A stretch of 64,000 bases of DNA from Cymodocea nodosa (lineage: Eukaryota; Streptophyta; Magnoliopsida; Alismatales; Cymodoceaceae), in NCBI GenBank assembly GCA_036874045.1, contig CM072344.1:4498501-4562500 (forward strand), given 5' to 3'. The position numbers and the translations under genes are program-made. The notes below the pieces were generated by a model. It made no database searches. It saw only the letters and a program-made list of their open reading frames with translations, and was not told where the DNA came from. Positions 39,301 through 60,022 of the stretch are shown here, one piece after another (within the stretch, counting starts at the first letter, position 1; each line of letters starts with the position of its first letter).

Positions 39301-39978
39301 ATGAAGAAATATGGAGTAAACCACAAAATTGCAACATCATATCATCTGCAAACAAGTGGACAAGTAGAAAGTGCTAACAAACAAATTAAGTTAATCTTAG
39401 AAAAAGTAGTAAATCCTACTAGAATAGATTGGGCTAATAGATTGATAGATGCACTTTGGGCTTATAGAACTGCTTATAAGACAAGTTTAGGTATGTCACT
39501 TTTTAGGCTAGTATATGGAAAAAGTTGTCATTTACCAGTTGAAATAGAACATAAAGCTTATTGGGCATTAAAAACTCTAAACACTAATTTAAATCAAGCT
39601 GCTGAAAATAGGAAAATGCAATTAATTGAATTAGAAGAATTTAGAGATGAAGCTTATTCGAAGACTGTAAGAGAAAAAGAGAAAATGAAATTCTAGCATG
39701 TTAGGAAAATTATTCCAAAAAGCTTTAAAATAGGACAAGAAGTATATTTTTACATGGCTAGACTCCATAACCATCTAGGAAAATTAAGATCTAGATGGGT
39801 AGGACCTTACATAGTTCGAAATATTTATCCCTATGGAGCTATTGAGATTGAAAATCCTAAAAATCAGAATATCTTTAAAGTAAATGGACAAAGACTTAGA
39901 CCAATTCTGAAAATACCAAAAAGCTCCTTTGGAATTATAGAAGAAGTCAGAGTAGAGAACTACTCGAGCTTTACTTAG
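36329..39978 (+). pseudogene. Athila pol, copy 1: protease, RT, RNase H, integrase
   Basis: Domains in order: protease (36500-36800, LIDLGVGINVMP, then RYPRGKIEDVLIKI; the family has DLGAS in place of DTG), an acidic spacer (36812-37138), RT (37200-38100, GWRVCIDYRKLN, IFMDDFTVYG catalytic block), RNase H (38240-38580, [11 protein letters not shown]), and integrase (38656-39978). The integrase has an HHCC finger ([11 protein letters not shown] ... [11 protein letters not shown]), DD35E residues in [16 protein letters not shown] and QVESAN, and a C-terminal GPYIV segment. Together these would make and integrate cDNA. It is broken by TGA 36361, TAA 36718, TGA 37136, a two-base deletion near 37390, TAA 37445, one-base losses near 38142 and 38578, and TAG 39694. 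A more continuous copy lies at 50739. Confidence 0.92.
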
Positions 39979-40292
39979 TAAGAAATCAGTTTTTATTTTA
40001 TTTTCATATATAAAAAAAAAATTTAAATTAAAAAATTATAAAATATAAAAAAAAACGTTGCGGTTCAAGCGACTAGATCCATTGATATGATTGGAACATA
40101 AAAAATCTATATTAATTTTCAGTAAAAAAATTTTTTGGTTTTACCGAAACTTAGTAACGGTTCAATCGAAGAAAAAAAAAAAAAGAAAGTCGGTCTGACC
40201 AAAACATAATATCGGTTAAATCGGTAAAAATCAAAAAAAGAAAACCTATTATCTTAAGTATTCATTATTATTATTATATCTGTTTGTACGGG

Positions 40293-40570: not shown

Positions 40571-42774
40571 ATGAGGAAGATGACACCCAAGTTTTGGAAA
40601 GATGTAGTTGACACAACACAGTTTCTAAAAGAGTCAGAGGAATGGCACATGCGATAGAAGATTCGGAACACGACAAGAGAAAAAGAGCTACAGAAGGTAG
40701 AATCTGAACTCTTCAACTTGAGAAAATTTTTAGTTGATTTGGGTATACAAATACCCTAGATAGTAGAAACAAAAATCAAAGTAGCAATAGAAATTGTTTT
40801 AGGCAAAGAAAGAAAAATTAGGCCAAACAATGAAGTAGCCCTAGAGCTAATCCAACGCAAAGCCAGATTATGGTTCAAAAAGTGCATTGTTAGTCGCACA
40901 ATAAGGCGACAGCAACAAGTAGTGGAAGAACAAGAGGAGCCGACTGCTGAAAGACCTGTTCCTGAGGAACAGTAGCCAAGACCTTTAGTTCCACCATTTA
41001 GGCCGTTGGCACAAGCAGCAATGTTGGGGCCTTCAACTGAAGAGGAATTAAAAGAATTTCAAGGACTAGTTCAAGTTGGGAAAAACCAAGGTGAACTAAA
41101 AGATTTAGCAGTAGCCAAAACACATCTCGTATTTGATGCACTTCGCAAGAAGAGGGCTGTAGAAAAGTTGAAAGCTCAATATAAAATCAAAGTAGAACAG
41201 CATCAAGAAACCACTATTAGATTTGCTGCAAGAGGAGAAGCTGAAGCTGGTCCTTCGAGACTAGCAAATATTGAAAAAATTAAACAAGAAGAGCCAGTAC
41301 CTATGGCTCAAAGGCGTGCAGAGCCATTGTTTTTAGATTTAATCTCAAAAGAAGAAGAGGAAGACCAGACACAATTAATCAGACGAAGGAAAGGAAAAGA
41401 GATAGTGCCTAAATGTCAAAAGGAGATTAAATTTGAAGTACCAATATCAATAGGGCCTGTGGAGCCAATTTTTATAAACTTGTTATCCGATTTTGAGGAT
41501 GAGCAGGAGCAGCAGCAACAAAAGCAAAGAGAAGAAGAAAAACAGGCTGAAATTAGTCTACAGCTTGTACAAGAAGAAAAAATAGAAATTAGGGTAGAAA
41601 TTGAATTGCCCGTGACTCCATCACAATCTGCCTCAGAATCAGAAAGAACAGTGACAGTGCAGATTGGTAGTCAGGAGGAAGAAGAAAAAACAGAAAATGA
41701 ACAAGAAGCTGAATGAAGCCATTTGGACAAAAATGACTTTGCAGATTCAACTGAATTAAATGAAACAATTCAAGACAGAGTGGAGAGTTCTGCTGGCTCA
41801 CCACCATAGACAAAAGCAGAAGCAAATGTTCAAGAATCTGCAGAACATTTTCAGCAAGTTCAAGTTCAGCCTATGGAAGAGGAAGATCAAGAACAAATTC
41901 CTCTAGAACAACACTGTCACATTTCTGACTCGACTGAAGCAACAATTCTGAATGAAGTACATTTTTGGAGTCAGGAAGCTTATAATAAATACCAAGAGAT
42001 TAGGGGTTATGATATCATATATAGTAGACCAGTAAATTGGGACGGAATGCAAGAAATTAAGAAATTATTTGAGTTCCAAGGTCTACTACAAATTATTTCT
42101 CAATAGAGAGGGCATGCAGTATATGAGAATCTAATGCCTTGTTTTTATGCAAATTTAAGAGAAGAAGAAGGACAATTAATTTCCAATGTCGAGGAAGCTA
42201 ATGTACAGATAACACCTGAGCTTCTCCACAACATTTTTGAATTAAAGAATGAAGGAAAGGAAATTTTGGAAAGCACAACTACCATTGAATGGACAAAGTA
42301 GGAAATCAAGGACAGTTTGGCTATCAATCCTGGTGTACCTTTATTAAATAGATTGAAGCATTTAAATGGTAAAGCACACATGGTAGCCAACATTTTGATT
42401 AAGAATGTCTATCAACGACAAGGCCATGACATAGAACTAAGTCAATTTGTCAAATGGGCCACATATGCAGTTGTAAATAGAATTCAAATAAATTGGTCTG
42501 CAGTTTTTATCTCCAAGCTGAGAACAATGAAGAAGAAATTATTTTATGGAGATTTGATTCCAATGCTGATGGTGGATTGTATCGATTTCACTAAATGGGC
42601 ATAAAAAAGGATCAGATCAAGAACCATTTCAGTGAAAGAGTACAGAAATTTTGTAGCTGTAGAGATTGCTGCACCTTCTAGAGGCATTACAGGAGCTGTA
42701 AAGAGGATAGAACAATTAGAGCAGCAATTAGAGAGACTCCATAAGGAAGTAGATGAACTTAGGAGTAGAGACTA
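40571..42774 (+). pseudogene. Athila accessory ORF after pol (plant transposon protein-like)
   Basis: One continuous frame starts MRKMTPKFWKDVVD and ends LHKEVDELRSRD. Its N-terminal half is highly charged (Glu/Gln/Lys-rich, several low-complexity E runs, PVTPSQSASESE). Its C-terminal half is ordered-looking (LNEVHFWSQEAYNKYQEIRGYD, LNRLKHLNGKAHMVANILI, LFYGDLIPMLMVDCIDFTKW) and ends in a short coiled coil. The C-terminal half resembles, from memory, the 'putative plant transposon protein' domain found next to Athila gag-pol; an envelope-like role is not supported because no signal peptide or transmembrane segment is visible. Eight in-frame stops (six TAG, one TGA, one TAA), no frameshift. 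A deleted second copy lies at 54684-54898. Confidence 0.65.
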
Positions 42775-43792
42775 AATTGTATTGTTCGTCTACTTTTATA
42801 TATTTGTATGAAAAATATCTGATTTGATTGTACTATAATTGATTCATATGAATGAATATATATTTTTCAGATATACTTTTCATGCATGTTTAGAATGATG
42901 AAATGGATGAACTATATTGAATATTATATAATTTGTGGAACATTATGCATGAATGTTTAAAAAGATTTACAGCTTGCTGAATGATAGGATTAAATAATAG
43001 ATGCTTGAAAATATCTGTATGCTACAAGGTAAAATGTAAATTCTGCATAACATGAAATGAACTGCAAGTTAAATATTTATATAATGTTCAGATTTAAATG
43101 AATTTTGATTAGAATGCTGCATTAATGACATGTATTTAACTTTATTTCAGTTAGTAGAATGTAGGAAGAAAAAAACATAGAGGTACTTATGAGGAGTATA
43201 CTTAGAGGTTGCCAAGTGTTAACTCAACGAAGTAAGTTCGTTGAGTTAAACTTAACTCCACGAGGTCAGTAATATAATATAAGGTCACTCCATTGAGTTA
43301 TCTATAACTCAACGAAGTTAGTCCATGGAGTTAGAAACAATAACTGACATTGTTCCGTTGAGTTATCTATAACTCAACGAGGTTAGTTCGTGAATTAAGT
43401 AGAACGGTTATTCTTTTAACCATGAACGAAACTTCGTCGATTTAGCGGTTACCAAAATTTGAAATTAGTAGTGGTACACATACCCATAGAAACATGAACC
43501 ACAATGCACATTGCAAGACACGTTCTTACAACGAGATTTATTCACTTTATGGATGTGCATCATATATATAAAACAGAATGTTATTTATGAGTTACCAGCA
43601 CTTTTAAAAGAAAGGAGAGAAGCGTTGAAGGAACTAGAAGGAGAAGCAGCTGATTCGACTTCATCCGTCAACAAATATTTACTAAATGGAAAGCTTCACA
43701 CTGGTATGTAATTAATCTTCTGCTGTTTATTTATGAGCACATGGACTCGTTCTCTGAGTACTAAACGATTAGTAAGAATACCTACCTAAGAA
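42775..43792 (+). other. Spacer with three hairpin repeats before the capsid ORF
   Basis: AT-rich non-coding stretch. Inverted repeats: TTAACTCAACGAA/TTCGTTGAGTTAA at 43219-43249 (13 bases, loop of five), TTGAGTTAT/ATAACTCAA at about 43293-43312, and CGTTGAGTTAT/ATAACTCAACG at 43356-43379. A tttatttcag acceptor-like word lies at 43141. A 66-codon ORF (43511-43711, with LLKERREALKELEGEA) ends at a donor-like gtatgt. It may be an upstream part of the capsid frame, but joining at the obvious GT-AG sites does not keep frame. Confidence 0.7.
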
Positions 43793-45076
43793 TATTCAAC
43801 ACAGAGGCGTATTGAAACATTTTCTGAACTAGACTTTAACGAAATCCTTTGGGGTGTAGCTAACCTTTCTTTAAAAGAGAACGTAGAGATGGCTGCTCTA
43901 GTAGAAAAACCATTAGGAGAAATTCTGTATCCTGAATTAGTTGATGAACTTTCATGTATTCGATTGCCAAACTTTGAGGGAGATAAGTTTGAACTGAAAT
44001 CTAATTATATTAGTCAATTGCCACATTTTCATGGATTAGAAAGAGAGGATGCCTATTATTTCCTTAGAGAATTTAATGAAGTTTGTCAAATAATGAAAAT
44101 GCCAAACATGAGTATAGATGCTGTTAAACTTAGATATATCCCTTTTGCTTTAAAAGACATAGCTAAGAGATGGTTATATACTCTGTCGCCTGATTCAATT
44201 TCTACATGGACTGAATTTTGCTTTATTTTTCTAGAAAAATATTATCCAACACATCAAACGATTAAAAAGAAAAAAGAAATATTAATGTGTAGCCAAAAAT
44301 AGGGTGAATCATTCTGAAAATATTTTGAAAGATTTAAAGATTTACTGACTCAATGTCTACATCATGTAATGAGTAAAGCACAATTAATAGGTATAATTTA
44401 TGAAGGCATAGATGTTTCAACGAAATCTTTATTAGAATCTACTTGTCAAAATGGATTTCTAAAACTATGTAGTGAAGAAGCATGGACATATTTAGAAAAC
44501 TTTGCAAAAAGAACTACATAGTGGGAAAACTCGACTGAAGCTATTGTAGATAAAAGAATATTGCCAAGAGGAATGCATGAAATAGATTCAAGTACTATGC
44601 TTGAAGTGAAATTAACTGAATTAACAAAGAAAATAGAAGAGTTATCATTAAATCAAAAGCTAGCAAAAAAGAATGCAAACACTAATGATTTAGATATTAT
44701 TTATGCTAGAAACCAGAAAGATAACTTTGGAAATTCTTATAATCCTAATTAGAGAAATCACCTAAATTTATCTTGGAGAAACAACAATTTCCAGAGAGGA
44801 AAAAATATAAATGAGAAGAATATAAGTTATGAAGCATTACTTGAACAAGGATCTAGAATAGAGAAATTAGAAAAGATAATCCAACAATTAAACAATCATT
44901 TGGATTTTGTATTTGGAAATGCTGCAATTCAAAATCAGAATAGAAATATACCACTTAGACAGAAGGAATCAATGGAAGTTAGACCTACTGGAGGATTGCC
45001 AGTACAAGCAATACCTAACCTTGTCAATAGAACTGTTAATGAAATTGATACCTCTTCTGGGAGGATAGTTGAATAA
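43793..45076 (+). pseudogene. Athila gag capsid domain, located downstream of pol
   Basis: The frame opens after a TAA near 43790 and reads RRIETFSELDFNEILWGV before MAALVEKPLGEI (ATG 43889). The Retrotrans_gag core follows: LPHFHGLEREDAYYFLREFNEVC, LRYIPFALKDIAKRWLYTL, SISTWTEFCFIFLEKYYP, then FERFKDLLTQCLHH, GIIYEGIDVSTKSLLES. These match the Athila form FHGLPxEDPxxHL..F, K..FPFSLxxxAxxWL, W..L...FL.KYFP, ERFK.LL..CPHH, FY.GL. It ends with a coiled part (LEKIIQQLNNHLDF) and a TAA. Stops inside: TAG 44300, TGA 44315, TAG 44519, TAG 44750. Capsid normally precedes the zinc knuckle in the same ORF. Here they are 8 kb apart and in the reverse order. Confidence 0.85.
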
Positions 45077-45137
45077 AGCAGTATAACTGAAATAACAATA
45101 TATATATATAAGTTTATTTATAGTTAATAGTATCATA

Positions 45138-45195
45138 GAGTTAGTTCTTAACTCAACAAACTTAGTCCGTTGAGTTATGCCCTAACTCCACGAGG
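45138..45195 (+). repeat. Hairpin repeat between capsid ORF and F-box-like ORF
   Basis: TTAACTCAAC/GTTGAGTTA with an 11-base loop, followed by ccctaactccacgagg, a decayed further half. Same family as the repeats at 40293 and 43219. Confidence 0.85.
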
Positions 45196-45262: not shown

Positions 45263-45521
45263 ATGGAATTGATGCAATTACTGCTGGATGCACTAAGAGA
45301 AGTACTGAGTAACTTGTCAGCTAAAGATCTGTGCAGGCTGTGTTGTGTATCAAAGGAAATTAAAGACTGTATTGAAGAAAAATATTTTCAAGGACTACAA
45401 GCTGCAAAAATGACTAAGATTAGAGATGGATTCATATGGAAGTTATTTAATCGTAGTTCAATTACCCATGAATATTTCAATATGGAAGAAACGACTGGAA
45501 TTCTACCCAATACATTAGAAG
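45263..45521 (+). pseudogene. F-box-like ORF, N-terminal part, cut by a copia element
   Basis: Begins with ATG at 45263 directly after an acceptor-like tatacag. Residues 7-45 read LLDALREVLSNLSAKDLCRLCCVSKEIKDCI, which follows the F-box pattern (L..D.L.E.L..L..K.L.R..CVSK.....I). F-box proteins bind SKP1 and select targets for ubiquitin ligase complexes. The reading frame passes at 45522 into the truncated LTR of the Tork element and stops soon after (45578), so the C-terminal part is missing here. The likely continuation of the same protein type is at 54900-56220. The ORF lies in the 3' part of an Athila-type element, a place where I know of no F-box gene. The F-box call rests on the pattern alone. 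Confidence 0.6.
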
Positions 45522-45608
45522 CCCAAAAGACAAGTTTGCCCCTGTACAAATTACCAAAGAAATACAACCATATTCAATGACACGTACATATACTTGATGG
45601 AAGACACA
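45522..45608 (-). repeat. Truncated 3' LTR of the Tork element (87 bases)
   Basis: cccaaaagacaag to agacaca matches 50651-50737 with three or four differences. The remaining 277 bases of LTR expected to the left are missing. Confidence 0.9.
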
Positions 45609-45685
45609 CGCATCACAAATCTCCACATTGTCTTTCATCAATCTTCACCACGAACAGGTGATGGATCACCAAGACCCAACTTGGG

Positions 45686-47377
45686 TCAACAGCAGCAATT
45701 GACGTTGAGTAAGTCCAAGCAATGCTTGAACTTGCTTTCAACAATGCCCTTTGTAAACATATCAACCGGATTGTCCTTTGTGTTGACCTTCATAATCTTT
45801 ATCTTGTTTTCATTCCTAAGGAAGTGATACTTAACATCAATATGTTTAATTCTGTCATGAAAGAGATTATCTTTGGAGAGACAAATAGCGCTAAGACTAT
45901 CACAGAAGATATCAGCTTTATCAATGCGCCAAACAAAGTCTCCAAGTAAGCCTTTCAACCAAATCCCTTCCTTTGCAGCTTCTATCATAGCCACATATTC
46001 AGCCTCAGTTGTAGACAGAGATACCGTAGGCTGAAGAGTTGATTTCCAACTCACAATAGAACCTGCAAATGTAAAGACATAACCAGATAATGCTCTCTTT
46101 CTGTCAACATCACCTGCATAGTTTGAGTCTGTATAACCAGCCAAAGTACAACCCTGATCTGCTGCATACATCAAGCCAACACCTAGAGTTCCTTTCAAAT
46201 ATCTAAATATCCTTTTAAATGCTTTCCAATGTTCCCTAACCAGATTGGACATGAACCTGCTAACAACACTTAAAGGATATGCCAGATCAGGTCTAGTGCA
46301 TACCATAGCATACATAAGACTTCCAACTGCTTGTGCATAAGGAACTTGCTGCATATCAAGCTTTTCAGAATCAGTTTGTGGACACATCGCAGATGACAAT
46401 TTGACATTTCTGTCATAAGGCGTGCTAATGGCTTTGCATGAAGCCATACCAAATTTGCTAAGGATCTTCTCAATATACTTCTGTTGATTCAAAAACAGCT
46501 TACCAGAATTTCTTTCACGCTTAATCTCCATTCCAAGAATTCTGCCAACTGGACCAAGATCTTTCATATCAAATTCTGATTTTAATGTGTCCTTCAGCTC
46601 CTGTATCACTTCGATATTCTTCACAGCTATAAGAATATCATCAACATATAGTAACAAATAAACATGTGTACTCTTATCAAGAGTTTTAACATATACACAT
46701 GAATCATAGTTGCTGCGTCTAAAACCAACTTTAACTATAAAGGCATCAAACCTTTTGTACCATTGGCGTGGTGACTGTATAAGTCCATACAAGGACTTCT
46801 TTAATTTGCACACCCAATCAGATTTGCCTTTCACCACAAACCCTGTTGGTTGTTCCATCCAAATATCTTCTTCTAACTCACCATGTAAGAAGGCCGTTTT
46901 TACATCTAGTTGTTCCAATTCTAAATTCTATGCTGCAGCAATGGATAACAAAATTCTAATAGATGTATGACGCACAACAGGAGTAAATACTTCATTGAAG
47001 TCAACTCCTTCTCATTGTGAATAGCCTTTGGCGACTAATCTTGTCTTGTGCTACACACTTGCATTGCCTTGAGTCCCAATCTTCTTCTTATAGACCCATT
47101 TGCAACCAACAATATTTGTGTTCTTTGGATGTTTCACTAATTCCTAAGTCTTGTTCTTATGGAGAGATTGGAGTTCCTCCTCTATAGCAGACATCCAAAG
47201 ACTAGCTTCTGAATCTTTCATTGCAGCTTCATATGTAGGTGGATCAACAAAATCATCTACCTCAACTGCTACTTGTAAGGCAAAAGCAACCAAACTGTCG
47301 TAGCCATATCTAATAGGAGGTCTAACGTCTCTTCTAGGACGATCTTTGCCAATGGTTCTTGGTGGTGGTTGCTCCAC
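45686..47377 (-). pseudogene. Tork element RT and RNase H
   Basis: The minus-strand open frame 46918-45686 (410 codons) covers RT from LDVKTAFLHGELEEDIWM through the catalytic YVDD (residues 91-94 of the stretch) to GILGMEI-like DLGPVGRILGMEIKR. RNase H follows, with GYTDSNYAGDVDRKRALSGYVF (catalytic Asp), SLSTTEAEYVAM (Glu) and KHIDVKYHFLR. Upstream (47377-46919) the RT start is readable with stops: ASLWMSAIEEELQSL, then CKWVYKKK and VAKGYSQ. This is the best preserved coding stretch among the mobile elements here, apart from stops such as the one before NLELEQLDV. It reads through LNVNCCC to its own stop. Confidence 0.93.
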
Positions 47378-48400
47378 CTCTTCCTCCTCAACTTCATTTT
47401 CCTAAGTTTCAGATGAGATTTCTCTAATTTCAACTTGATCAGTGATAGGTAGCTGCTATGCATCATCTATCTCCATCTGTTGAGGAAGGGTGTGTTCAAT
47501 TTCTGGTGTTTCACCTGCTAGTTTATCTGTTGCCTATAAAAGAGAATTCTCATCAAAAGTAACATCACGGCTATATATTACTTTGTGAGACTCAAAATCA
47601 TATATCCTGTATCCCTTTACACCAACACCATTGCCCACAAATATGCCTTTCTTGGCACGTGGTTCCAACTTGCCATTATTCACATGATAGTAAGCTAGAC
47701 ACCCGAAAATTCTGAGCTTTGAATAACTAGCAGATCTTTTCAACCATACCTTAGGAGGTATCTTCCCATCTAAGGCACTAGAAGGGGACCTGTTCACTAG
47801 ATAGGAAGCTGTGTTAACAGCCTCTACCCAAAACTTCTTGCTGAAACCTACATGAGACAGCATACAATGTGCCTTTTCTAGGAGTGTTCTATTCAATCTT
47901 TTAGCTACTCCATTTTGCTGAGGGGTATACCTGACAATGTTATGCCGTGTAATGCCTTCATCTTTACAAAAGTTATCAAATTCTTGAGAACAAAACTCAA
48001 GACCATTATTAGTTCTAAGATATTTTACCTTTCTGTCTATTTGGTTTTCTACCTACTTCTTCTAATGCTTGAAGCAAAAAAAAGATTCACTTTTGTGTGT
48101 CAAAAATAAAACCTAGTTCATCCTTGAATGACAATCAATGATAGAAAGAAAATATCTGGAACCTGCAATAGAAGGCTGGCGTGATGGCCCTCAACAATCA
48201 GCATGAATATAAACAAGAACTCTCTTGGAGCTATGCTGACTGTGTGCAAATGACACTCTTTTCTATTTGTCAAAGACACAATGCTTGCACATGTCAATAC
48301 AAGCAACCTTGTGCCCATCAAACTTGCCTAGACTACTCAATTTCTGCATTCCTTTTTGCCCCAAATGACCCATCCTTGAGTGCCACATGATAGAAAAATC
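47378..48400 (-). pseudogene. Tork element integrase
   Basis: Minus strand. Pre-integrase MWHSRMGHLGQKGMQKLSSLGKFDG near 48395-48320 (HHCC finger region with CIDMCKHCVF), a decayed core with FLSIIDCHSR near 48130, then the late part at 47896-47534: MNRTLLEKAHCMLSHVGFSKKFWVEAVNTASYLVNRSPSSALDG, FGCLAYYHV, KKGIFVGNGVGVKGYRIYD. Integrase inserts the cDNA. Multiple TAG/TGA stops and one or more frame changes lie between 48320 and 47900. An acidic spacer before RT covers 47530-47380. Confidence 0.85.
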
Positions 48401-49660
48401 CTACTGACCAGATATAGCTGATGTAGCTATGCCAACAATTGGAGTGCCCTGCAAAATGTATAAGGGACTAGATTTGGTTCCCTTCATAACAACTAACGAG
48501 CCTTTCAGTATGCTGATCTTTCCCTCACCACCTATATATCTATAACCCTTAGCATCAAGGGCCATTAGTGAGATCAGACTTTTTCCAAGCTTTGGGACGT
48601 GCCAAACGTCCTCCTGAATTCTAACTGTGTCATCATGTAGTTTAAATTTTATAGTGCCCACACCAACTCTAGAACACACATCATCATTGGCCAAAGTCAC
48701 TTGACCACCCTCCACCTGCTCGTAGGTGTCAAAATACTCCCTAGTAGGAGTCATATGATGTGAAGCTCCTGAGTCCATAATCCACTGATCATCAGAATAG
48801 GCACTGCAACAAACTGTAAGAGAAAAGTCATCACCTAACGTAGAACTGGTTTCTACCACAGCAGCCTTTCCTTTGTTCATAAGCTTGGGACAATGTGATT
48901 TCCAATGTCCTTTCTCCTTACAGTAATGGCAAGTATCCCTAGAGTACTTGCCCTTCGACTTGCTTCTGCTTCTATTCTTCCCTCCACCTTGTCTCTGGCT
49001 TCTTCCCCTGTTCTCTTACTGCTGAGCTGAGAGGCCAACACCACTTACCTCGTTTATACCATGCACCATGTGCTTGAGCTCCCTAGAATGAAGGCTGGAC
49101 CTCACTTCTTCTAGTATAATTAAATCTCTTCCAACTACACAAGACTGAACAAAGTTTTCATAACTCAATGGGAGTGAATAAAGCAAGATAAGAGCTGCAT
49201 CTTCATCTTCTATGATTACTCCAATATTCTTGAGTTCCATCAGAATAGCATTTAGCTGATCTAAATGCTGCTTAAGAGGTACACCTTCTATCATCTTTAA
49301 AGAAAACAATCTCTGCTTTAACAACAATTTGTTTGTTAAAGACTTAGTCATATACAATGACTCAAGTTTCTACCAAAGACCTAACGAGGTAGATTCATCA
49401 GCAACTTCTATTATAACTTCATCAGACAAACACAATAAGATGGTGGAGTGAGTTTTCTCCTCCTGCAATTCAAACTCTAGAGAATTTTTGTTCAGAGTAG
49501 TATCCTTATTTAAAGGAGCCCAAATACCTTGTTGCTTTAGAAGTGCTTTCATCTTAATTTGCCATAAGCTGAAGCTATTCTTACCATCAAACTTTTCTAT
49601 CTTCAACCCCGAAGTATTCATGTTTTCAAAACAACAAACAACCAGTAATACACACAAGAT
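48401..49660 (-). pseudogene. Tork element gag and protease
   Basis: Minus strand. The gag start MNTSGLKIEKFDGKNSFSLWQIKMKALLKQQGIW at about 49621 is the Tnt1-type beginning. Then come VIIEVADESTS, a stop in place of the expected Trp (49371), LKQRLFSLKMIEGVPLKQHLDQLN and LLYSLPLSYENFVQS. The zinc knuckle CHYCKEKGHWKSHC (about 48935-48890) has all ligands. Then the protease core WIMDSGASHHMT (active Asp at about 48775) and LANDDVCSRVGVGTIKF, ending at a TAG (48401). Gag packages the RNA and protease cleaves the polyprotein. Apart from about three stops it is well kept. Confidence 0.92.
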
Positions 49661-49950
49661 ATAATGTGATTTCAACAAACACAATTCTGCGGCAAGGTAC
49701 ACAATAACAAGCAATATCTCAACAAATATATGCTACTAAAACTACTGATTTCAATGAAATGCAATCAGCCACAAGCCAAGCACACTACTTATCACAAAAC
49801 AATAGCAAATACTCGCACAAACCAAGCACAAAACCACAATCACAAAATGCCCAAAATCCGACAATCAAAGAGTCACTCGTCTAGAAAACTACTATACCCT
49901 AGCCAGATGCCTCCTACTGTATCTCTCTGAATACGAAACTTCTGACCACA

Positions 49951-50330
49951 AAATTTTAAAGGAAGGAATTTCAGGAAGCTTACTACACGTCCTCAAAATA
50001 TGAGATGCAACGAAGCACGGACGAGGAAGGCGCATGACTTGACATCAGAGTGTGTAGAGTGGCACCAGGGACGACGGCAGTTGCGACAATGGGGGATATC
50101 CTTGCGGAAATGGCTTAAACCTTGATCAATCTCTTCAAAATTTTAAAGGAAGGAATTTCAGGAAGCTTACTACACGTCCTCAAAATTTGAGATGCAACGA
50201 AGCATGGACGAGGAAGGCGCATGACTTAGCGTTGGAGTGTGCAGACTAGCGTCGACGACGACGGCAGTTACAACAATGGAGAGATCCCTTTCGCAAATGG
50301 CTTGAACCTTGATCAATCTCTTCGAAACTT
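49951..50330 (-). repeat. 187-bp tandem duplication in the Tork leader
   Basis: aaattttaaaggaaggaatttcagg... starts at 49951 and again at 50138. Both copies run to aaccttgatcaatctcttc, with scattered differences. It lies between the primer site (50350-50372) and gag. Confidence 0.92.
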
Positions 50331-50373
50331 TAGATGCAAACTCAAAGATGTCCAACCTGGCTTTGATACCAGT

Positions 50374-50737
50374 TGTTGTGAGGAAAGATCAAACAAACGT
50401 GGAGCATCTTGGGGTGGCGTGGAGAAGAGATCTACGTGGAAGAGAGGATTGCGAGTGGAGAATTCGAAGAACAACAAATTTACGTGGTTCCCCAACACGG
50501 GTACGTCCATGGGTGATCAATCTATCATGATTCCTTATTGTATGGTTGCTGGTACAAAGAAGGGGGAGAACAAAATCAAGGGATGGTTTGGCATGGCATC
50601 CCTTGGACGTGGATGACCCCTTACATATATAGGGGCAACAGTTGGTGATACCCAAAAGACAAGTTTGCCCCTATACAAATTACCAAAGAAATACAACCAT
50701 ATTCAATGACACATACATATACTTGATGGAAGACACA
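50374..50737 (-). repeat. 5' LTR of the Tork element (364 bases)
   Basis: On the minus strand it begins TGTGTCTTCCATCAAG (50737) and ends CACAACA (50374), followed at once by ACTGGTATCAAAGCCAGG, the methionyl initiator tRNA primer site. acatatataggggcaac (plus strand) near 50620 may belong to its promoter. Confidence 0.9.
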
Positions 50738-50738
50738 C

Positions 50739-53700
50739 TTTGTTAGATCTATTGTAGAAAATACCACCTTGTGCTAAATTTCTAAAGGATTGGTGTACTA
50801 AGAAAAGAGAGCGAAAAGTTCTTAGAAAGGTCTTTTTAGCTAAGCAAAGTAGTTCCCTATTTCTGCCACAAATTCCTAAAAAGTTATCTGATCCTGGAAT
50901 CCCTATTATATCATGCACCATAGGAAATACCAATCTAGAAAGAACCTTAATAGACTTAAGTGCAGGTATAAATGTTATGCCAAGTGATATATTTGCATCC
51001 TTAGGATTAGAAGGCTTAACTCCTACTAGTACGGTTATTCAATTAGTTGATAGAAGTATAAGATACCCTAGAGGAAAAATAGAGGATGTCTTAATTAAAA
51101 TCAAAAAATTTATATATCCTATTGATATTGTAATTTTGGATTCCCAACAAATTAAGCATAAAAATAGTGATACATCTTTAATTTTGGGAATGCCATTTTT
51201 AGCAACATCAAGGACTGTTATAAATTGTAAAACTAGAGTAATGAAGTTAGCATATGGTAATGAGGATACTCAACTAAATATTTTCAAACCAGAAAGGTTT
51301 GAGGAGTTAGAAATATCCTTACATACCATAGACTTTTTAGAGGATGAAGGAGATATGTTAGAGGATGTGATTCAAGAAGAATTAAATAGGCAAATCAATT
51401 CTGAAACTTTAGATGAAAGTGAAAGCATAAATATAGAAGGAGATCTGGAAGAAATTAATTTAGAAACTGATGATGTTCAATTAGGAGCTCTAGCTTCTGA
51501 TGGGCAACATTTAGAATTAAAACTTTTACCTCTTGAATTAACCTATATATTTCTGGAAGAGAAATGAACCTGTCCAATCATTATTGCTTCAGATTTAAAA
51601 GAGGATCAAATAGCTAAATTAAAAGATGTAGTGAAAAGTTATAAAGAAGCAATAAGATGGACTATGATTGATATAAAAGGGTTAAGTTCAAATTTACGCT
51701 GTCACTACATATATTTAGAAGAGAATGCTAAACTTGTTAGAATTCCTGAGAGGAGATTGAATCCAAACCTTAAAGAAGTAGTCAGGAAGGAAATAGTAAA
51801 ATGGTTAGATAATGACATAATTTATCCGATTTCTAATAGCTCGTGGGTTAGCCCAATCCATGTAGTTCCCAAGAAATCAGGATTAACAGTTATTAGGAAT
51901 GAAAGTCAAGACTTGATACCTACTAGAATTCAATCAGGCTGGAGAGTATGTATAGATTATAGAAAGCTGAATGCTGTGACTAGGAAAGATCATTTTCCCT
52001 TACCTTTTATGGATCAAATGCTGGAAAGATTAGCAAGGCAAGAATATTTTTGTTTGCTAGACGAGTATTCAGGTTATAATCAAATTCCAGTAGCATTAGA
52101 GGATCAAGAGAAAACAACTTTCACCTGTCCTAATGGAACTTATGCTTTTAAGAGAATGCCATTCGGATTATGCAATGCACTAGTTACCTTTCAAAGGTGT
52201 ATGCAGGGCATATTTACTAGAATGGCTGAAGATTTTTTAGAAATATTTATGGATGATTTTACTGTATATGGCAACTCATATGAAGTTTGTTTAAGTAATT
52301 TAGACCAAATATTAAAACGCTGTGTGGAAAAAAATCTGGTTTTAAATTGGGAAAAATGACACTTCATAGTTAAACAAGGAATAGTCTTAGGGCATGTTGT
52401 TTCTAAGAAAGGGTTGGAAGTAGATAAAGCTAAAATAGAAGTAATTTCTAATCTACCAAAACCTAAATCAGTAAAAGATATTAGATCATTTCTAGGACAT
52501 ACTGGTTTTTATAGAAGATTTATTAAAGACTTGAGCAAAATAGTTAGACCTTTAACTAATCTATTAAAATATGTCCCATTTAACTTTGATAAAAATTGCA
52601 AGGAAGCATTTTTCAGACTTAAAACTAGCTTAATTTCAACTCCTATAATTCAAACACCTGATTGGAGCCATCCATTTGAATTAATGTGTGATGCATCTGA
52701 TTTTGCTGTAGGAGCAGTGTTGGGACAGAAGATAGAAAAATCTCCTAGAGTGATTCATTATGCAAGCAAAACCTTAAATGATGCTCAAGTTAATTACACA
52801 ACTACTGAAAAAGAACTATTAACTGTTGTGCTTGCCTTAGAAAAGTTTAGATCATATCTGATTGGAGCTAAAGTAATAGTATACACGGATCATGTAGCTT
52901 TAAAACATCTAATAGCAAAAAAAGACACTAAGCCTAGATTGATCCGATGGATATTATTATTACAAGAATTTGATCTAGAAATTAAAGATAAAAAAGGTTG
53001 TGAGAATGTAGTAGTAGATCATTTATCAAGATTACAAATAGAAAAATCAAATATTGAAATTAAGGATAATTTTCCTGATGAATAATTAATGACCATCAAC
53101 ACAATACCTTGGTATGCAAACATAGTTAATTACTTAGTTACTAGTTTAACACCTAAGGATTGGAATAGACAAAATAAGAAATTTTTTTTCTCAAGAGTAA
53201 AATATTACTATTGGGAAGACCCATACTTATTTAAGAAATGTCCTAATCTGGTTTTAAGGAGGTGTGTTCCAAAAATTGAATATCAGAGCATATTATCTTT
53301 CTGTCATGACCAAGCTTGTGGAGGGCATTTTAGCTTAGGGAAAACTGCTGCAAAAATTCTGCAATGTTAGTTTTATTGGCCAACACTATTCAAAGATGCT
53401 CATAAATATTGCTTAAGTTGTTTAAGATGTCAACAAATAGGAAGAATATCAAAGAGGAATATGATGCCTCTTAATCCATTTGTTGAGGTTGAAATCTTTG
53501 ATGTGTGGGGAATAGATTTTATGGGTCCATTTCCTATGTCTAATCAATTTAATTACATATTGTTGGGGGTGGATTATGTATCTAAATGGATAGAAGTTAT
53601 TCCTACAAAAAATAATGACAATAAAGTGGTAATACAATTTATAAGAACTAATATATTTGCTAGATTTAGAATACCTAAAGCTATTATCAGTGATAGAGGA

Positions 53701-54415
53701 ACTCATTTCTGTAATAGAAGTTTTGAAGCCTTAATGAAAAAATAGGGAGTAAACAACAATATTGTAACATCATATCATCCACAAACAAGTGGACAAGTAG
53801 AAAGTGCTAACAAACAAATTAAGTTAATCTTAGAAAAAGTAGTAAATCCTACTAGAACAGATTGGGCTAATAGATTGATAGATGCACTTTGGACTTATAG
53901 AACTGCTTATAAGACAAGCTTAGGTATGTCATCTTTTAGGCTAGTATATGGAAAATGTTGTCATTTACCAGCTGAAATAGAACATAAAGCTTATTAGGCA
54001 TTAAAAACTTTGAACACTAATTTAAATCAAGCTATTTAAAATAGGAAAATGCAATTAATTGAATTAGAAGAATTTAGAAATGAAGCTTATTCGAAGACTG
54101 TAAGAGAAAAAGAGAAAATGAAATTCTGGCATGATAGGAAAATTATTCCAAAAAGCTTTGAAATAGGACAAGAAGTATATCTTTACATGGCTAGACTCCA
54201 TAACCATCTAGGAAAATTAAGATCTAGATGGGCAGAACCTTACATAGTTCGAAATATTTATCTCTATAGAGCTATTGAGATTAAAAATCTTAAAAATCAG
54301 AATATCTTTAAAGTAAATGGGCATAGACTTAGACCTATTCTGAAAATACCAAAAAGTTCTTGTAGAATTATAGAAGAAGTCAGAGTAGAGGATTACTCGA
54401 GCTTTACTTAGTAAA
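50739..54415 (+). pseudogene. Athila pol, copy 2: protease, RT, RNase H, integrase
   Basis: Collinear with 36308-39978 at roughly 95 percent identity by eye, but in one single reading frame from end to end. It starts inside the gag-protease linker (the Tork LTR ends there). Domains: protease (LIDLSAGINVMP, copy 1 has LGVG), RT with WVSPIHVVPKKSG and FMDDFTVYG, RNase H ([26 protein letters not shown]), integrase finger (HDQACGGHF ... [11 protein letters not shown]), [16 protein letters not shown]-terminal part to 54411. Stops: TAG 50755 and TGA 51565, both also in copy 1, then copy-specific TGA 52357, TAA 53083, TAG 53368, TAG 53743, TAG 53995 and a TAA near 54037. Not functional as it stands. 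Confidence 0.92.
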
Positions 54416-54898
54416 AAATCAGTTTTTATTTTATTTTTATAAAAAAAAGAAGAATTTAAATTATTATTATAAAATATAAAAAATCGTTGCGGTTCAACTG
54501 ACTAGATCCATCAATATGACTAAAACATAAAAAAACTATATTAATTTTTAGTAAAAAAAATTTTGGTTTAAACGAAACATATTATCGGTTCAACCGAGAA
54601 AAAATGTCGATCTGACCAAAACATAGTATTAGTTAAACCTGTAAAAAAAAAAACTATTATCTTAAGTTTTTTTTTATTATATCTACCACAAAATTAGAAA
54701 GAACAGTGATAGAGAAGATTGGTAGTTAGGAGGAGGAAGAAAGAATAGAAAATGAATAATAAGCTGAACAAAGCCATTTGGACAAAAATGACTTTGCAGA
54801 TTCCAATGAAGAGTAAGAAACTCTTCAGCAATTTATGGAAAGAATTCAAGACAGAATAGAGAGTTCTGCCAGCTCACCACCACAGACAAAAGCAGAAT
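54416..54898 (+). pseudogene. Athila accessory ORF, second copy, internally deleted
   Basis: 54416-54680 matches the spacer after integrase in copy 1 (39979-40262). At about 54684 the text jumps to the equivalent of 41630 (ttagaaagaacagtgatagagaagattgg), so about 1.37 kb is deleted, including the hairpins and the N-terminal half of the accessory ORF. At about 54898 it leaves the accessory ORF (after accacagacaaaagcagaa) and enters the F-box-like C-terminal part, a second deletion that removes the capsid ORF. Confidence 0.85.
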
Positions 54899-54899
54899 T

Positions 54900-55469
54900 A
54901 TGGGGATGGATGAAAGATTAATCATATACAAGACCAGACCAAGGTATGCAAGTCTATTACCTGATATTTTGATAAGAAATCTTATCACAAGAGAAGAATG
55001 GAATATAGGAAGACCTAATAGATATGAAGTACCAACTGTAAATTGTGGGTCGGCTTTAATATTTTCTGATAAAAATTCGACCATTCTTGAAAAATTATAT
55101 TATTGGAGACCTACAGGAAATTGGGATGAAGATTTATGCTTAAGTGTGTATAATTTTTTGAATAGATCTTGGACTGAAAATACTATGATATATCTAGGAC
55201 AGAAATCATTAATTGACAACATGCATGTCATACTTGATAGATATATATATCTAGTCATAGATATATCAGTTGCATTTAGATCTGATTTATACATTGTAAG
55301 CATAGATAGTTATGATGAATATATAGAAATTTGTTTATACCGAGAGAAATAGCTAAACCACCATCTGCAGAATTTGATAAAATTCAAATAGGGATGTGGT
55401 ATAATGAATATGATGATCCTACTTTATGTCTAATAAGATGATGGGATGAATTGATGAAATTTCAAATAT
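54900..55469 (+). pseudogene. F-box-like protein, C-terminal part, first duplicate
   Basis: Plus-strand ORF 54900-55352 (MGMDERLIIYKTRPRYASLLPD ... YEVPTVNCGSALIF ... EKLYYWRPTGNWDEDLCLSVYNF ... YIYLVIDISVAFRSDLYIVSIDS), continuing with frame changes to 55469. Strings such as VILD-(R/G)-YIYLV...LYIVSIDSYDEYIEI resemble the F-box-associated type (V.LNG.LYWL ... I.SFD...E.F.EI.LP), but only loosely. From 55022 on the text is repeated at 55482. It is attached to an accessory-ORF fragment by a deletion, so its original N-terminus (compare 45263) is lost in this copy. Confidence 0.45.
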
Positions 55470-56220
55470 GGATTATGAAAAATATGAAGTACCAACTAAA
55501 AATTATGGGTCAGCTTTAATATTTTCTGATGAAAATTCTACCATTCCTGAAAAATTATATTATTGGAGACCTATTGGAAATTGGAATGAAGATTTATGCT
55601 TAAGTGTGTATAATTTTCTAAATAGATCTTGGACTGAAAATACTATGATATATCTAGGACAGAAATCATTAATTAATAGCATGCATGTCATACTTGATGG
55701 ATATATATATCTAGTCACAGATATATCAGTTGCATTTAGATCTTATTTATACATAGTAAGCATAGACAGTTATGATGATTTTATAGAAATATTACCTATA
55801 CCTAGTGATATAGCGAAATCACCATCTTCAGAATATGATCAAATTCAATTGGGAATGTGGTATAATGAATATGATGATCCTACTATATCTCTGATAAGAT
55901 GGTGGGATGAATTAAGAAATTTCAAATATGGATTATGAAAGACTTAAATGAATGGAATTGGGAAGAAGAATATATTGAAATAGATGTAGAAATAGAAACA
56001 GCTACATTATCTTAGAACAAAAGAGGATCTCTTTCTGCATTTCATTTCATTAATGGTAATACCTTATATTTAGTATTGATAACATACTGCAAGTTTACAA
56101 GCTAAAAAGGAAAGCAAATTGCATTAAAATAGAATTAATAGCAAGAAGAATTACGCCTAAAAAGTTTGCATGGACTGACACGTTTATTCCATTTGTTACT
56201 ACTTTTCAATCATGTTTTTA
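55468..56220 (+). pseudogene. F-box-like protein, C-terminal part, second duplicate and end
   Basis: ORF 55468-55938 repeats 55022-55480 (460-base period, so the duplication shifts frame) and reads on further than the first copy: EILPIPSDIAKSPSSEYDQ, LGMWYNEYDDPTISLIRWWDELRNFKYGL. Beyond the stop the text still looks coding with frame changes: MKDLNEWNWEEEYIEIDVEIETATL, GSLSAFHFINGNTLYLVLITY, IELIARRITPKKFAWTDTFIPFVTTF (to about 56219). The order of an EI.LPSD step, an acidic-aromatic segment and a final IPFV-type end is what I would expect of an F-box-associated propeller half. Domain identity is inference. Confidence 0.45.
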
Positions 56221-58010
56221 AACTATGATTCTATGCTTTTAATGTTGTGTGTATTTTGCATTTTTTTTGAAAAGAAAAATTTTAGTTTTAGTTTTATTTT
56301 ATAAAAAAAAAAGAAAAACAAAATATCAATCCAGTTTGTTGGTATCTGTTCTGGAAACCAATTGGCTTGCTTGTGAGCCACCAAAGGCATAGGAGCCTAG
56401 GTTCCACACAGGACACTGATTTAACATGTTAAGTTGCTATTTTGTTATATACTCTACTTTTATGTGTGAATGAAAAGTTTTTCAGAATCAAAAATCAGAA
56501 GATATTGAAGGAGATACAAAAGGACGAGGTATGTAATTGATTACTTACCCTGAATTTACATTTAAACTCAGTTCGTTGAGTTAGGTGCTAAGTCAACGAA
56601 ACAATATTCATGCTTGCTACATTTACTGTATTTACTATAAAATCTTTTACATTGAAGACAATGCAAAATGTAGGAATGGGGGGAGGTAATTAAAGTAATG
56701 ACCATGTAATTTTGTTAATTAAAGGAATTAGAATGGTATTGCAAAAGTTCTGTGGAAATTGAAAATTTTTTGAACAAGAATTTACTGTAACTATCCGATA
56801 ATTGAAACTGTAAAACTTTTAAGAACTGTAACTACTTGAATGTTATATTTATAATCTTATATAAGATGCTACAAATTTTATTATTCATACAAATCTAGAT
56901 ATAGTATCTTAAGTTGTTGCTGAATTTTATGAGTTTAATAGTTTCATGATTTTAAAAAAAAGAAGAAAAAGCTTAACTGAAACTCAATAAATTATCTAAA
57001 ATCCTAGAAGAGCTGAAATGTTGATTTTTGGATTAAATGAAATACATATGATCAAGGATACATTTAATTTGATTGATTAAACTTGTAGAATGATTTATGT
57101 GTAGAGCTTATTAAACTACAGAAAAAGTATGAGCTTATTGATATGGATTCATATTTTCAGTAAATAATAGAAGTAGGACTATATGAGATTTGTGTTTTAA
57201 TGCATCTATATTAATGAAATACGTATATATACTGTGAGTATTGTTTGTTTTGTAAAAAAAAAAAAAGAGAGAGAAAAACTTTGAGAGTTTATTGACTTGT
57301 TTGATCACAAGCCTTTTGTACTTAAGCAGATAGGTATGTAAGGATTGTTGACCTGAAAAGGACTCTTTAAATCTGGCAACTTAAGATCCTGATCAGATCT
57401 GGGATTGTTGACTGAAAGTTCGATACATGGGTACACTAGAAAGCTTTTGTATGATTCAAGCTTATCAAATTAACTTTTAAAGTACAAATATGCATATAAT
57501 GTTTTGAAAAGATACAAGTGTTTTGTGAAATACAGATATCTTTTGAATTGAGTATATGTTCTGTTACCTAAAATTGCTGAAGTATGAATCTAGAATAGAC
57601 TTTTGAAGTTGTTTATTTGAGATACAATTCTTTATTCTACTTGTCTTAATCATATTGAATTGGATTGTCTTTTGATTCGTATGTACTTGAAATTTATTCT
57701 GGAAATCATATTGGAAAATTCAGGATGATAGATGCTGAAAAGAAAAACAAATGATAATATAATTAACACTTATGTGATGCTAATATATTTTGTATGTAAT
57801 TTACATATATTCTAAGTATATTTGTAGGTTGAAGAGGAGAAAATAAAGTTAAAATAGATTACTGAAAAATACATAATATCTATATAGTAATCTAAATTAT
57901 GTATTCTGAAGAAGAACTAAGTGAATAATTAATTCTGACACTTTAGAAAGACCAACTAATTAGATCTTAGTTTGCTAAGGGACTAACAAAATTTAAGTAT
58001 GGGGGAAGCG
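56221..58010 (+). other. Athila 3' non-coding region with hairpin and polypurine tracts
   Basis: 1.8 kb, AT-rich, no ORF of note. Holds an imperfect hairpin TTCGTTGAGTTA/TAAGTCAACGAA (56573-56600), a first purine tract aatggggggaggt (56676-56688) and the terminal purine tract agtatgggggaagcg (57996-58010) directly before the right LTR. Confidence 0.8.
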
Positions 58011-60022
58011 TTTAAAATGAAAAAGTGCATAATATTAACAGTTAAATGATGGTTAATTGCATAATATTTAGCTTATCATATGAGAATTAAGCTATTATGT
58101 TATAATTGCACTATTATATGCTTTAATCTACATAATTTCAGGGAATTAATGTTAATTTAGTACATTTCTGAACTGTCGGTAAATTGCAGGCTGTGAAATT
58201 CTTGAGTATCCGAATTTTCTGTTATTTCGGAGAGTTATGTTTAATGTACCGAATAATTATATTTTAAAGAATATTTTATTATTTCCTGAAGTACACGTGT
58301 GGAAACCATAATGCATGACTTAAGTGGATTTTCGGTAAGTTATCTGTTAACTATCTGAAATGCATCTAGGTATTGGATAGTTAGGTTCAAAAGTGTCCGA
58401 AATATTTGAACTTGTTAAGTTAGAATTATGCACATGTTGAATTTAAATGTTTTATTATATCACGTGAGATACACATATTTAACTCGTTAAGTTAGTATAA
58501 CTGTACACGTTGAGTTACATGAATATATACTAAGGTAACGCATTATGTTAGCAGCTTATTTCTTTATTGCACGTGTTTTATAGTTAAATCAATGAAGTAA
58601 GTTCGTTGAGTTATCTGTAACTCCATGGACCATTTATTTTCTAATATGCCACTATAGCGGTTACAGAAACAGGACATTCGAAGGAAAACCACAATTGCAT
58701 GTATCATGCAGAAATTCACTCATGGAAGGGAGAAGAAATCACCATCGTTGATTTGAATGAAGAAAATCCAACCGATCATCTAAAGTAGAAGTAGTTACTA
58801 TTGAAGAAATATAAAAGAAGAGGAGAAAAAACAAAGAAAGTGTGGTTGGCGGTGTGTGGCAATGAGTGTAAAGTTGGAGGACCGTGCTAACTACAAGCAG
58901 CGTCGGAAGTTCACTAAAGCATCTACACCATCACCAACAATTCACCAACATCACCATAATCACCAACCATCAGAGGTCTGTGAGGATACTTTCCTGATGT
59001 CAGGTCGATTCCAAGCCAAACACGATGCCTGAGAACCATTGTGAAGAGTGATCGCGTCGCGGGAAGGAAAGCCATTTTCACTAAGCATCGACTCATATCT
59101 CAGGAGATCATAAAGCTTCTAGCCTTAGTTTCGGGTTGATGCCAGTATGTTGAAGAGGAGATCATCTTGCAATTCTAGACTCGCGATTCTATAGGGAGAG
59201 AAGGCAGGATTGTAAGTGATTAAGTTTTCAGTGGTGTAATCGCGTAGCATGTAGTGACGAAAGTATTTACTGTCGATAGAGATTTTTACATTTCACCTTT
59301 CGCCCATTTTCATGAACATCTCAAAACAAAAATACCAAAAACAACAACTTATCTATGTTTATATATAGCATTTAAGTGTTGTATTGTTTGTTTTGTATCG
59401 TGATTAAAGTTATCACTATCAGTTTTGTGAATGTTTTATGTTTGTTTGATTCAGAAAATACAAAATAGTATTACAGTTTACTGAAATTGATTCATTCTAG
59501 ATACTTAAAGATTTTAATGGTTATTGTTTGAAATATTTGAATGTTAGTATTGCTTAATGATAAATCTAATATTAGCTAGCATTAAAGAGCTTAATTGATG
59601 TTATTTACAATCTGTGGAACCGCCCAATGGTTTGCCGAATTCATCTATAAATAGCAATATTAAATTAGAAAGATAGGCTCGTGGAGTTAACTTAAGTTCA
59701 CGAGATTAGTCCGTTGAGTTAGCCATAACTCCATGAACTTAGTCTGTTGTGTTAACTACAACTCAACAGTGTGATTAATGAACACATTAAGTATAATATA
59801 AAAAAAAATAGAAGAGTTCACAATTCTTACTCAATTCTCTATGGGATCGACCTGTACTTGCACACAAATACAATATACACTATGCACTTGTAGTTAAAAT
59901 ACAAATTGGAATTAATATCTAATTTTTGTGAAAGGTTGTTTGTTTACTTCTTAAAGAAATTATTGATATAAGCATAAAGCAAATTAACCAAGTTAAAAAT
60001 AGAAGTTAACAAATACAAGTTT
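58011..60022 (+). repeat. Right LTR of the Athila-type composite element (about 2.0 kb)
   Basis: Begins TTTAAAATGAAAAAGTGC after the purine tract and ends before the primer site at 60025. It is the longest LTR copy here. It contains CGTTGAGTTA-type repeats at 58590-58630 and 59685-59775 and one 136-bp unit (58317). Identity to the left LTR is roughly 85-90 percent where both exist. Confidence 0.88.

What the first reader, a model, noticed from the sequence alone, without database searches (positions are those of the whole stretch)
45263..56220. F-box-like gene carried in the 3' part of an Athila-type element
45263 encodes an F-box pattern in its own ORF, and 54900-56220 encodes a matching F-box-associated-like C-terminal half in the second element copy. 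Both follow the same hairpin-spaced series, so the gene seems to belong to the element. An element coding for a ubiquitin-ligase adaptor could act against host silencing proteins, as some plant virus F-box proteins do.
Basis: partly seen in the sequence, partly recalled or inferred. Interest (0 to 1): 0.8.

Follow-up and report, generated by a model that had tools for sequence, protein, structure and literature searches.

The report
F-box gene carried by a retrotransposon
A very common jumping element in this plant-like genome carries its own F-box protein gene, the kind of protein that marks others for destruction, and some genomic copies look like RNAs from which the coat-protein gene was spliced out to reach it.

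Summary
45263-45521 is a true F-box (PF00646, 1.5e-8). 54891-56215 is the C-terminal part of the same gene from a second, differently broken element copy. Elsewhere in this 375-Mb genome the halves form one ORF of 376-379 codons at 17 places. The genome search scored 150 of 6,155 candidates, all matching; the 149 besides the window at 78-94% identity. In 20 of 20 stretches read, F-box and C-terminal parts adjoin; gag lies upstream in 18, a 3' LTR downstream in 17. The C-terminal part resembles plant FBA_1, below cut-off. F-box codons show frame-specific constraint; the rest shows only a kept frame. (2) A 1,550-nt GT-AG interval holding gag precedes the F-box. It is gone at 3 of 48 places, exactly at the splice sites in L027 and L041, so the F-box message is probably made by splicing gag out. 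An SCF-adaptor role is likely but untested; action against host silencing is conjecture. My library searches listed no earlier plant case.

The parts
33350..35136 (+). 5' LTR of element copy E1 (matched part)
   Evidence: blastn to the LTR at 58010-59652 and to parts of 4-1628 of the window
35246..35258 (+). primer-binding-site-like sequence after the E1 5' LTR
   Evidence: regex hit; the tRNA-Asp label is recalled, not from a call
35300..36328 (+). 5' ORF remnants: CCHC-like motif, coiled region (35447-35830), LRSG-type tail; no capsid match here
   Evidence: zinc knuckle only at E 0.12; tblastn with gag of L045 hits the window only at 43769-44713; coiled and LRSG labels are my reading
36309..40281 (+). 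pol region of E1 with its 3' untranslated tail
   Evidence: 94% to 50738-54684; RT and RNase H domains in homologous L034, integrase in L041
40298..40387 (+). hairpins hp2
   Evidence: fold z -7.7
40760..42775 (+). Glu-rich / Transposase_32-like ORF region of E1
   Evidence: PF20167 1.7e-5 in homologous L043, 0.0084 here; both below the curated cut-off
43220..43379 (+). hairpins hp3
43577..43703 (+). exon upstream of the gag-containing intron (its 5' edge is inferred)
   Evidence: joined exactly to the F-box exon in L027 and L041, with substitutions in L038
43704..45253 (+). 1,550-nt inferred intron GTATGT...ATACAG containing gag and hpF
   Evidence: coordinates; exact excision in L027 and L041, similar junction with substitutions in L038; 45 of 48 places keep its 3' end; acceptor AG in 19 of 19 aligned copies that keep it
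43733..45076 (+). gag (capsid), frame broken in the window; located downstream of pol
   Evidence: PF03732 1.9e-7 here, 1.7e-20 in L045; start codon read by eye from the alignment and checked
45149..45192 (+). hairpin hpF before the F-box ORF
   Evidence: a hairpin within 150 bases upstream of the F-box start in 16 of 20 stretches (list)
45263..45521 (+). N-terminal part of the F-box gene (residues 1-86), F-box domain
   Evidence: tblastn
45522..50738 (-). Copia element with a truncated LTR; separates the E1 and E2 parts
   Evidence: 88-bp repeat, Copia-like ORFs on the minus strand (family by my reading), PBS-like sequence 50360-50370
50739..54684 (+). pol region of copy E2
54681..54897 (+). 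end of the stretch that E2 shares with E1 (41626-41821); E2 then jumps into the F-box gene
54891..56215 (+). C-terminal part of the F-box gene (FBA_1-like), frame broken, with a 460-bp tandem duplication
   Evidence: tblastn of L043 ORF; duplication
56574..56598 (+). hairpin between the F-box gene and the 3' LTR
58010..59983 (+). 3' LTR of E2
   Evidence: LTR downstream of the F-box gene in 17 of 20 stretches

Best explanation
A high-copy Ty3/gypsy-type LTR retrotransposon carries a resident F-box accessory gene (about 379 aa: N-terminal F-box, C-terminal FBA-like domain). Shown: the order LTR - 5' coiled ORF - pol - Transposase_32-like region - gag - F-box gene - LTR (E1 with E2 in the window; parts of it in the other stretches); a kept frame; constraint on the F-box codons; genomic copies in which a GT-AG interval holding gag is exactly removed in front of the F-box start codon. 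Inferred: one primary RNA is alternatively spliced, unspliced RNA serving gag (and being packaged) and spliced RNA serving the F-box protein; the protein binds SKP1 and directs an SCF ubiquitin ligase to a host or element protein that limits transposition. The identity of the target, for example a silencing factor, is conjecture.
For: F-box domain in 17 of 17 proteins scanned, best 5.9e-11. FBA_1 in 6 of 17 at E<=1, best 0.0012; in the four matches shown with coordinates residues 201/202 to 308-310 align to the start of the profile. 18 of 150 scored genome hits have an uninterrupted frame of 382-415 codons stop to stop (counted from the table). F-box and C-terminal part adjoin in 20 of 20 stretches, gag upstream in 18. 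18 of 18 pairs of 5' coil and F-box with the F-box 7.6-15 kb downstream lie on one strand, 11 of them 9,515-9,830 bp apart, one of these being the window. Splice footprint at 3 of 48 places; L027 and L041 have different nearest relatives over 285 nt, which keep the intron's 3' end. Stop codons: 0 of 112 common variants against 29 of 271 singletons (p 5e-5), and 18 and 15 in the shifted frames. F-box codons 1-45: common variants 3 nonsynonymous to 10 synonymous against 10:2 and 9:3 in shifted frames (p 0.005, 0.017).
Against: Outside the F-box, amino-acid changes among common variants are no rarer than in shifted frames (codons 96-379: 56:30 against 47:37 and 57:25, p 0.27 and 0.62), and codons 46-100 have pairwise dN/dS 1.22; the C-terminal domain is shown to be kept open, not kept in sequence. 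The stop-codon result is helped by choice: 18 of the 20 long stretches were picked for long frames; among 23 copies not picked for frame, variants in three or more copies include 3 stops of 108, against 16 and 15 in shifted frames. FBA_1 stays below the curated cut-off in every table shown. No SKP1 binding, expression or target data. The footprint removes only the gag interval: L041 still holds pol and other upstream parts, so how ribosomes reach the F-box ORF is unsolved.
Confidence: 0.7

Rival explanations
1. Passenger gene: a host F-box gene was captured once and amplified as hitch-hiker; it has no role for the element.
For: No detectable amino-acid constraint in the C-terminal two thirds; host F-box/FBA families are very large (recalled); plant elements with captured genes are known (PMC7264820, passages).
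Against: No stop among common variants of the 43 copies and frame-specific constraint in the F-box codons, acceptor AG in 19 of 19, long frame still present in copies without pol coding sequence in the stretch (L036, L039, L040) or without gag (L038, L041), though all of these were picked for that frame.
Confidence: 0.18
2. The C-terminal domain binds an element protein (such as its own gag) and the SCF ligase tunes capsid amounts or uncoating, rather than attacking host silencing.
For: gag lies inside the interval that is removed in front of the F-box, which would suit a regulatory pair.
Against: No interaction data; nothing excludes host targets.
Confidence: 0.2
3. The exact loss of gag in L027, L038 and L041 is ordinary deletion, not splicing.
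For: Other deletion junctions exist in this family (L047, L048, L050), L038's junction carries substitutions, and I saw no RNA.
Against: Both ends fall at GT and AG with a U-rich tract before the AG, to the base in L027 and L041, and these two share only 90.9% over 285 nt while each has a closer relative that keeps the intron's 3' end.
Confidence: 0.07
4. pol-before-gag is a local rearrangement or artefact of this window.
For: The window is a nest of broken copies; Neumann et al. removed elements with unexpected domain order as likely mispredicted (PMC6317226, passage). Direct view is thin: outside the window, pol coding sequence upstream of gag within one stretch is seen only in L034.
Against: gag sits just upstream of the F-box gene in 18 of 20 other stretches, with the Transposase_32-like region upstream of gag in 9 of these and integrase upstream of the F-box in L041; coil to F-box spacing is constant over many contigs; the coil lies behind an LTR without gag in E1, L031 and L040.
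Confidence: 0.08

Closest known systems
Plant Ty3/gypsy OTA elements with extra ORFs (Athila, Ogre, Retand; env-like ORFs, Athila ORF-1, Transposase_28, plant mobile domain), PMC7264820 and PMC6317226 (passages seen)
   Same: [quoted passage not shown] long LTRs; RT, RNase H and integrase of Ty3/gypsy type
   Different: Extra ORF is an F-box gene; gag lies downstream of pol and inside an inferred intron; 'f-box' occurs 0 times in the main text of either paper
Ogre and Bagy-2 splicing (PMC6317226 and PMC7264820 passages)
   Same: An element RNA is spliced in some transcripts to express a further ORF
   Different: [quoted passage not shown] here the interval contains the whole gag, and splicing is inferred from genomic copies only
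Polerovirus P0, viral F-box-like silencing suppressor (PMC6593998, abstract start in search listing only)
   Same: [quoted passage not shown]
   Different: P0 is tied to AGO1 and silencing suppression; here function is untested. Domain make-up of P0 not compared here
Zisupton DNA transposon with an F-box in one isoform, and nematode F-box genes with a Tc1/mariner HTH (PMC12062965, passages)
   Same: F-box associated with a transposon
   Different: DNA transposons in animals; the authors write that they found no evidence for capture of F-box domains by TEs
Plant F-box/FBA_1 proteins such as CPR1 and SLF (recalled)
   Same: Length near 380-390 aa, N-terminal F-box, FBA from about residue 200
   Different: Host genes, not element genes

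Membership tests
F-box protein | F-box domain above the curated cut-off | tested here: met
F-box protein | binds SKP1 in an SCF complex | not testable with these tools
   no wet-lab data
F-box/FBA (type 1) protein | FBA_1 domain above cut-off | tested here: inconclusive
   6 of 17 at E<=1, best 0.0012; the four shown score 13.4-16.0 bits against 21.1; 0 at E<=10 for the two window pieces
Ty3/gypsy LTR retrotransposon | LTRs plus RT, RNase H and integrase in that order | tested here: met
   the three domains come from two copies (L034, L041) homologous to the window's pol
Ty3/gypsy LTR retrotransposon | standard gene order with GAG first | tested here: not met
   gag is downstream of pol in E1 and L034 and of the Transposase_32-like region in 9 stretches
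Athila lineage | RT-RH-INT phylogeny in the Athila clade | not tested
   no reference sequences used
Athila lineage | Athila ORF-1 (PF03078), found in only 16% of Athila elements | tested here: not met
   not among Pfam hits of the ORFs scanned; not every ORF was scanned
viral-type F-box silencing suppressor | suppresses RNA silencing | not testable with these tools
   works-like hypothesis only

The most novel reading that the evidence does not exclude
A retrotransposon family with gag moved behind pol uses one alternatively spliced intron as a switch: unspliced RNA makes capsid and is packaged, spliced RNA makes an element-owned SCF adaptor that destroys a host silencing or restriction factor, a plant parallel of retroviral accessory proteins such as Vif or Vpu and of polerovirus P0.
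Probability: 0.3. Interest if true: 0.93.

Novelty: new variant of a known kind. Interest (0 to 1): 0.77.

Why it matters
If it works as inferred, plant retrotransposons would have accessory genes that turn the host's ubiquitin system to their use, as animal retroviruses do. No listed title or abstract start of my library searches reports a plant LTR element with a resident F-box gene; one search listed 12 of 382 papers and one search listed 12 of 18. The relocated, intron-borne gag is a second oddity of a sort that the domain-order filter of a large survey would discard (PMC6317226). Both are directly testable with RNA reads and a yeast two-hybrid.

Tried and rejected
Rejected: gag spliced from an upstream exon in frame. 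I first read a small intron before gag (43704 to about 43790), but other copies show an unspliced start codon at the homologue of 43733 and the apparent acceptor is a CAG/TAG codon of gag (my reading). Rejected: L047 as a spliced gag message; its junction has an inserted piece and no clean GT-AG. Single-sequence AlphaFold of window 55450-55935 gave pLDDT 38 and was not used. PDB profile search gave one hit at E 0.11, taken as chance. Protein database: 1,218 candidates, none at E<=0.001; whether it holds plants is unknown. Viral contigs: 36 stretches matched a pattern, none confirmed. Pairwise dN/dS of 18 long-frame copies: 0.49 overall, 0.11 in codons 1-45, 1.22 in 46-100, 0.55 after 100; the frame-shift control shows that the whole-gene value alone is weak evidence: shared N/S 1.56 in the real frame, 1.78 and 3.28 in shifted frames. 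Yardstick: gag in 14 copies has N/S 2.49 for singletons and 1.61 for shared variants (p 0.08) with 10 shared stops. Rows dropped: L008, L020, L027, L028 from the variant counts (poor alignment), leaving 43 of 47; L004 and L012 duplicate L031 and L032; L038 was left out of alignment A1. An earlier tally of 18 of 20 for the hairpin before the F-box (script) counted two hairpins of another place; the list gives 16. Papers PMC7602945 and PMC6416283 were opened at their one F-box passage each; neither describes an element-coded F-box.
Full report
What is in the window. Two broken copies of one LTR retrotransposon family lie in tandem. E1 runs from a 5' LTR (33350-35136) through pol (36309-40281), a Glu-rich/Transposase_32-like region, gag (43733-45076) and an F-box ORF (45263-45521). 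E2 starts in the protease region at 50739, runs through pol (to 54684), passes at about 54897 into the C-terminal part of the F-box gene (54891-56215) and ends in a 3' LTR (58010-59983). Between them is a minus-strand Copia element with one LTR cut to 88 bp (reading of the LTR and PBS by eye). I infer that the cut removed the rest of E1's F-box gene and that a separate deletion in E2 removed everything from the Transposase_32-like region to the F-box.

The F-box is real. PF00646 scores 34.7 bits against a cut-off of 20.5. The search of the window's own genome (374.6 Mb, 28 contigs) with the 105-aa ORF scored 150 of 6,155 first-look candidates; all 150 matched, the 149 besides the window at 78-94% identity, and 18 of 150 have an uninterrupted long frame. 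I read 20 places in 10-kb stretches, all 18 long-frame ones plus two broken ones, and 27 further distinct places in 3.2-kb stretches. In the 18, the halves seen in the window form one ORF of 376-379 codons (17 places) or 362 (one); two of the 18 have lost the start codon. That the genome is a plant's is my inference.

It belongs to the element. In 20 of 20 stretches the F-box part is followed by the C-terminal part; gag lies upstream in 18 of 20 (L038 and L041 have none); the 3' LTR follows in 17 of 20 (L032, L038 and L046 show none there). Positions of 150 hits of the 5' coiled ORF and 150 F-box hits, both lists capped, give 27 pairs within 40 kb. In 18 the F-box lies 7.6-15 kb downstream of the coil, all on one strand, 11 of them at 9,515-9,830 bp (one is the window); the other 9 are farther apart, reversed or upstream. 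Copies without pol coding sequence in the stretch (L036, L039, L040) or without gag (L038, L041) still hold the long F-box frame, though all were chosen for that frame.

gag is behind pol. In the window pol precedes gag in E1. The gag ORFs of L034, L045 and L031 score 4e-18 to 2e-20 with Retrotrans_gag; RT and RNase H lie upstream of gag in L034 and integrase upstream of the F-box in gag-less L041. In 9 stretches the Transposase_32-like region lies upstream of gag (L031-L035, L037, L043, L044, L046). Behind the LTR of E1, and behind the LTRs seen in L031 and L040, the 5' coiled ORF follows without a capsid match (a PBS was found in L040 and E1, not in L031). The standard plant Ty3/gypsy order is GAG-PROT-RT-RH-INT, and the large survey removed elements with unexpected order (PMC6317226, passages). 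My genome-wide search for gag positions did not complete, so the number of normal-order members is unknown.

The F-box message is probably spliced. Just before the F-box ATG stands a U-rich tract and an AG kept in 19 of 19 aligned copies. Upstream of gag stands GTATGT. In L041 and L027 the sequence runs from CTTCARACTG directly into AATCRACAAATG, that is, exactly from donor to acceptor; L038 shows a similar junction with substitutions. Of 48 places (47 and the window), 45 keep the intron's 3' end and 3 have the exon joined. Over 285 nt, L027's nearest read relative is L043 (96.1%) and L041's is L040 (98.2%), both with the intron's 3' end, while L027 and L041 share 90.9%, so I take at least these two as independent events. 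I read them as reverse-transcribed spliced RNAs; the interval (43704-45253 in the window, 1,550 nt) contains gag. L041 retains pol upstream, so only this interval had been removed. No RNA was seen.

Constraint. Among 43 aligned copies (4 of 47 dropped), variants present in five or more copies include no stop codon (0 of 112), singletons 29 of 271; in the two shifted frames common variants give 18 and 15 stops. Part of this comes from choosing long frames: in 23 copies not so chosen, variants in three or more copies include 3 stops of 108, against 16 and 15 in shifted frames. In codons 1-45 common variants are 3 nonsynonymous to 10 synonymous, against 10:2 and 9:3 in shifted frames (p 0.005 and 0.017). 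In codons 96-379 the ratio 56:30 does not differ from shifted frames. So the frame and the F-box are kept; for the C-terminal domain no amino-acid constraint was detected, as would suit either a fast-evolving recognition domain or weak constraint. Pairwise dN/dS was 0.49 overall, 0.11 in codons 1-45, 1.22 in 46-100 and 0.55 beyond (18 copies).

C-terminal domain. FBA_1 was found in 6 of 17 proteins at E<=1 (best 0.0012); the four matches shown with coordinates align residues 201/202 to 308-310 with the beginning of the profile at 13.4-16.0 bits, cut-off 21.1. The window pieces alone give no FBA hit. I read it as a diverged FBA domain; this is not proven. Searches of the PDB, the protein database and viral contigs gave no relative at their thresholds.

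Mechanism. Shown: gene, place, frame, F-box constraint, splice-like footprint. Inferred: splicing as its cause; SKP1 binding from the F-box; a switch between gag and F-box products; a target that limits the element. A virus-coded protein with an F-box-like motif that targets a silencing factor is known in polerovirus P0 (PMC6593998, abstract start only), but nothing here tests this.

Literature. Searches of the held open-access library listed no paper whose title or abstract start reports a plant LTR element with an F-box gene; one search listed 12 of 382 and one search listed 12 of 18. PMC12062965 (passages) names an F-box in a fish Zisupton isoform and states that no evidence for capture of F-box domains by TEs was found. 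Papers outside that library were not searched.

Age. The two LTRs of L039 are 95.3% identical over 1,906 columns, about 1.9 million years at a recalled rate of 1.3e-8 per site and year.

Change on re-checking. Confidence in the best explanation went from 0.72 to 0.70 because pol upstream of gag is seen directly in fewer stretches than first written and because of the stop codons in the unselected copies.

Noticed in passing
window 40298-40387, 43220-43379, 45149-45192, 56574-56598 and LTRs: The palindrome CGTTGAGTTA/TAACTCAACG recurs before the 3' ORFs and in LTRs (38 matches against 2.8 expected; a hairpin within 150 bases before the F-box start in 16 of 20 stretches, list; RNA fold z -7.7 to -2.7). 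Role unknown.
   Followed up: partly
window 12034-14030 and 16879-18842: 2-kb direct repeats, 87-90% identical, that also hold matches of the same palindrome; perhaps LTRs of a related element.
   Followed up: no
window 49949-50145 and 50136-50332: 187-bp tandem duplication, 87% identical, next to the Copia-like ORFs.
   Followed up: no
L031, L040, L047, L048, L050: LTRs followed at once by a 5' coiled ORF, leader or gag: tandem copies that seem to share LTRs, or deletion derivatives.
   Followed up: partly
window 40976-41713: Glu/Gln-rich ORF in front of a Transposase_32-like region, no clear Pfam family.
   Followed up: partly
L036, L039, L040: Derivatives in which an LTR is followed by the untranslated tail behind pol (homologue of 54468-54682), leader, gag or a piece of it, and the F-box gene, with no pol coding sequence in the stretch.
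   Followed up: partly
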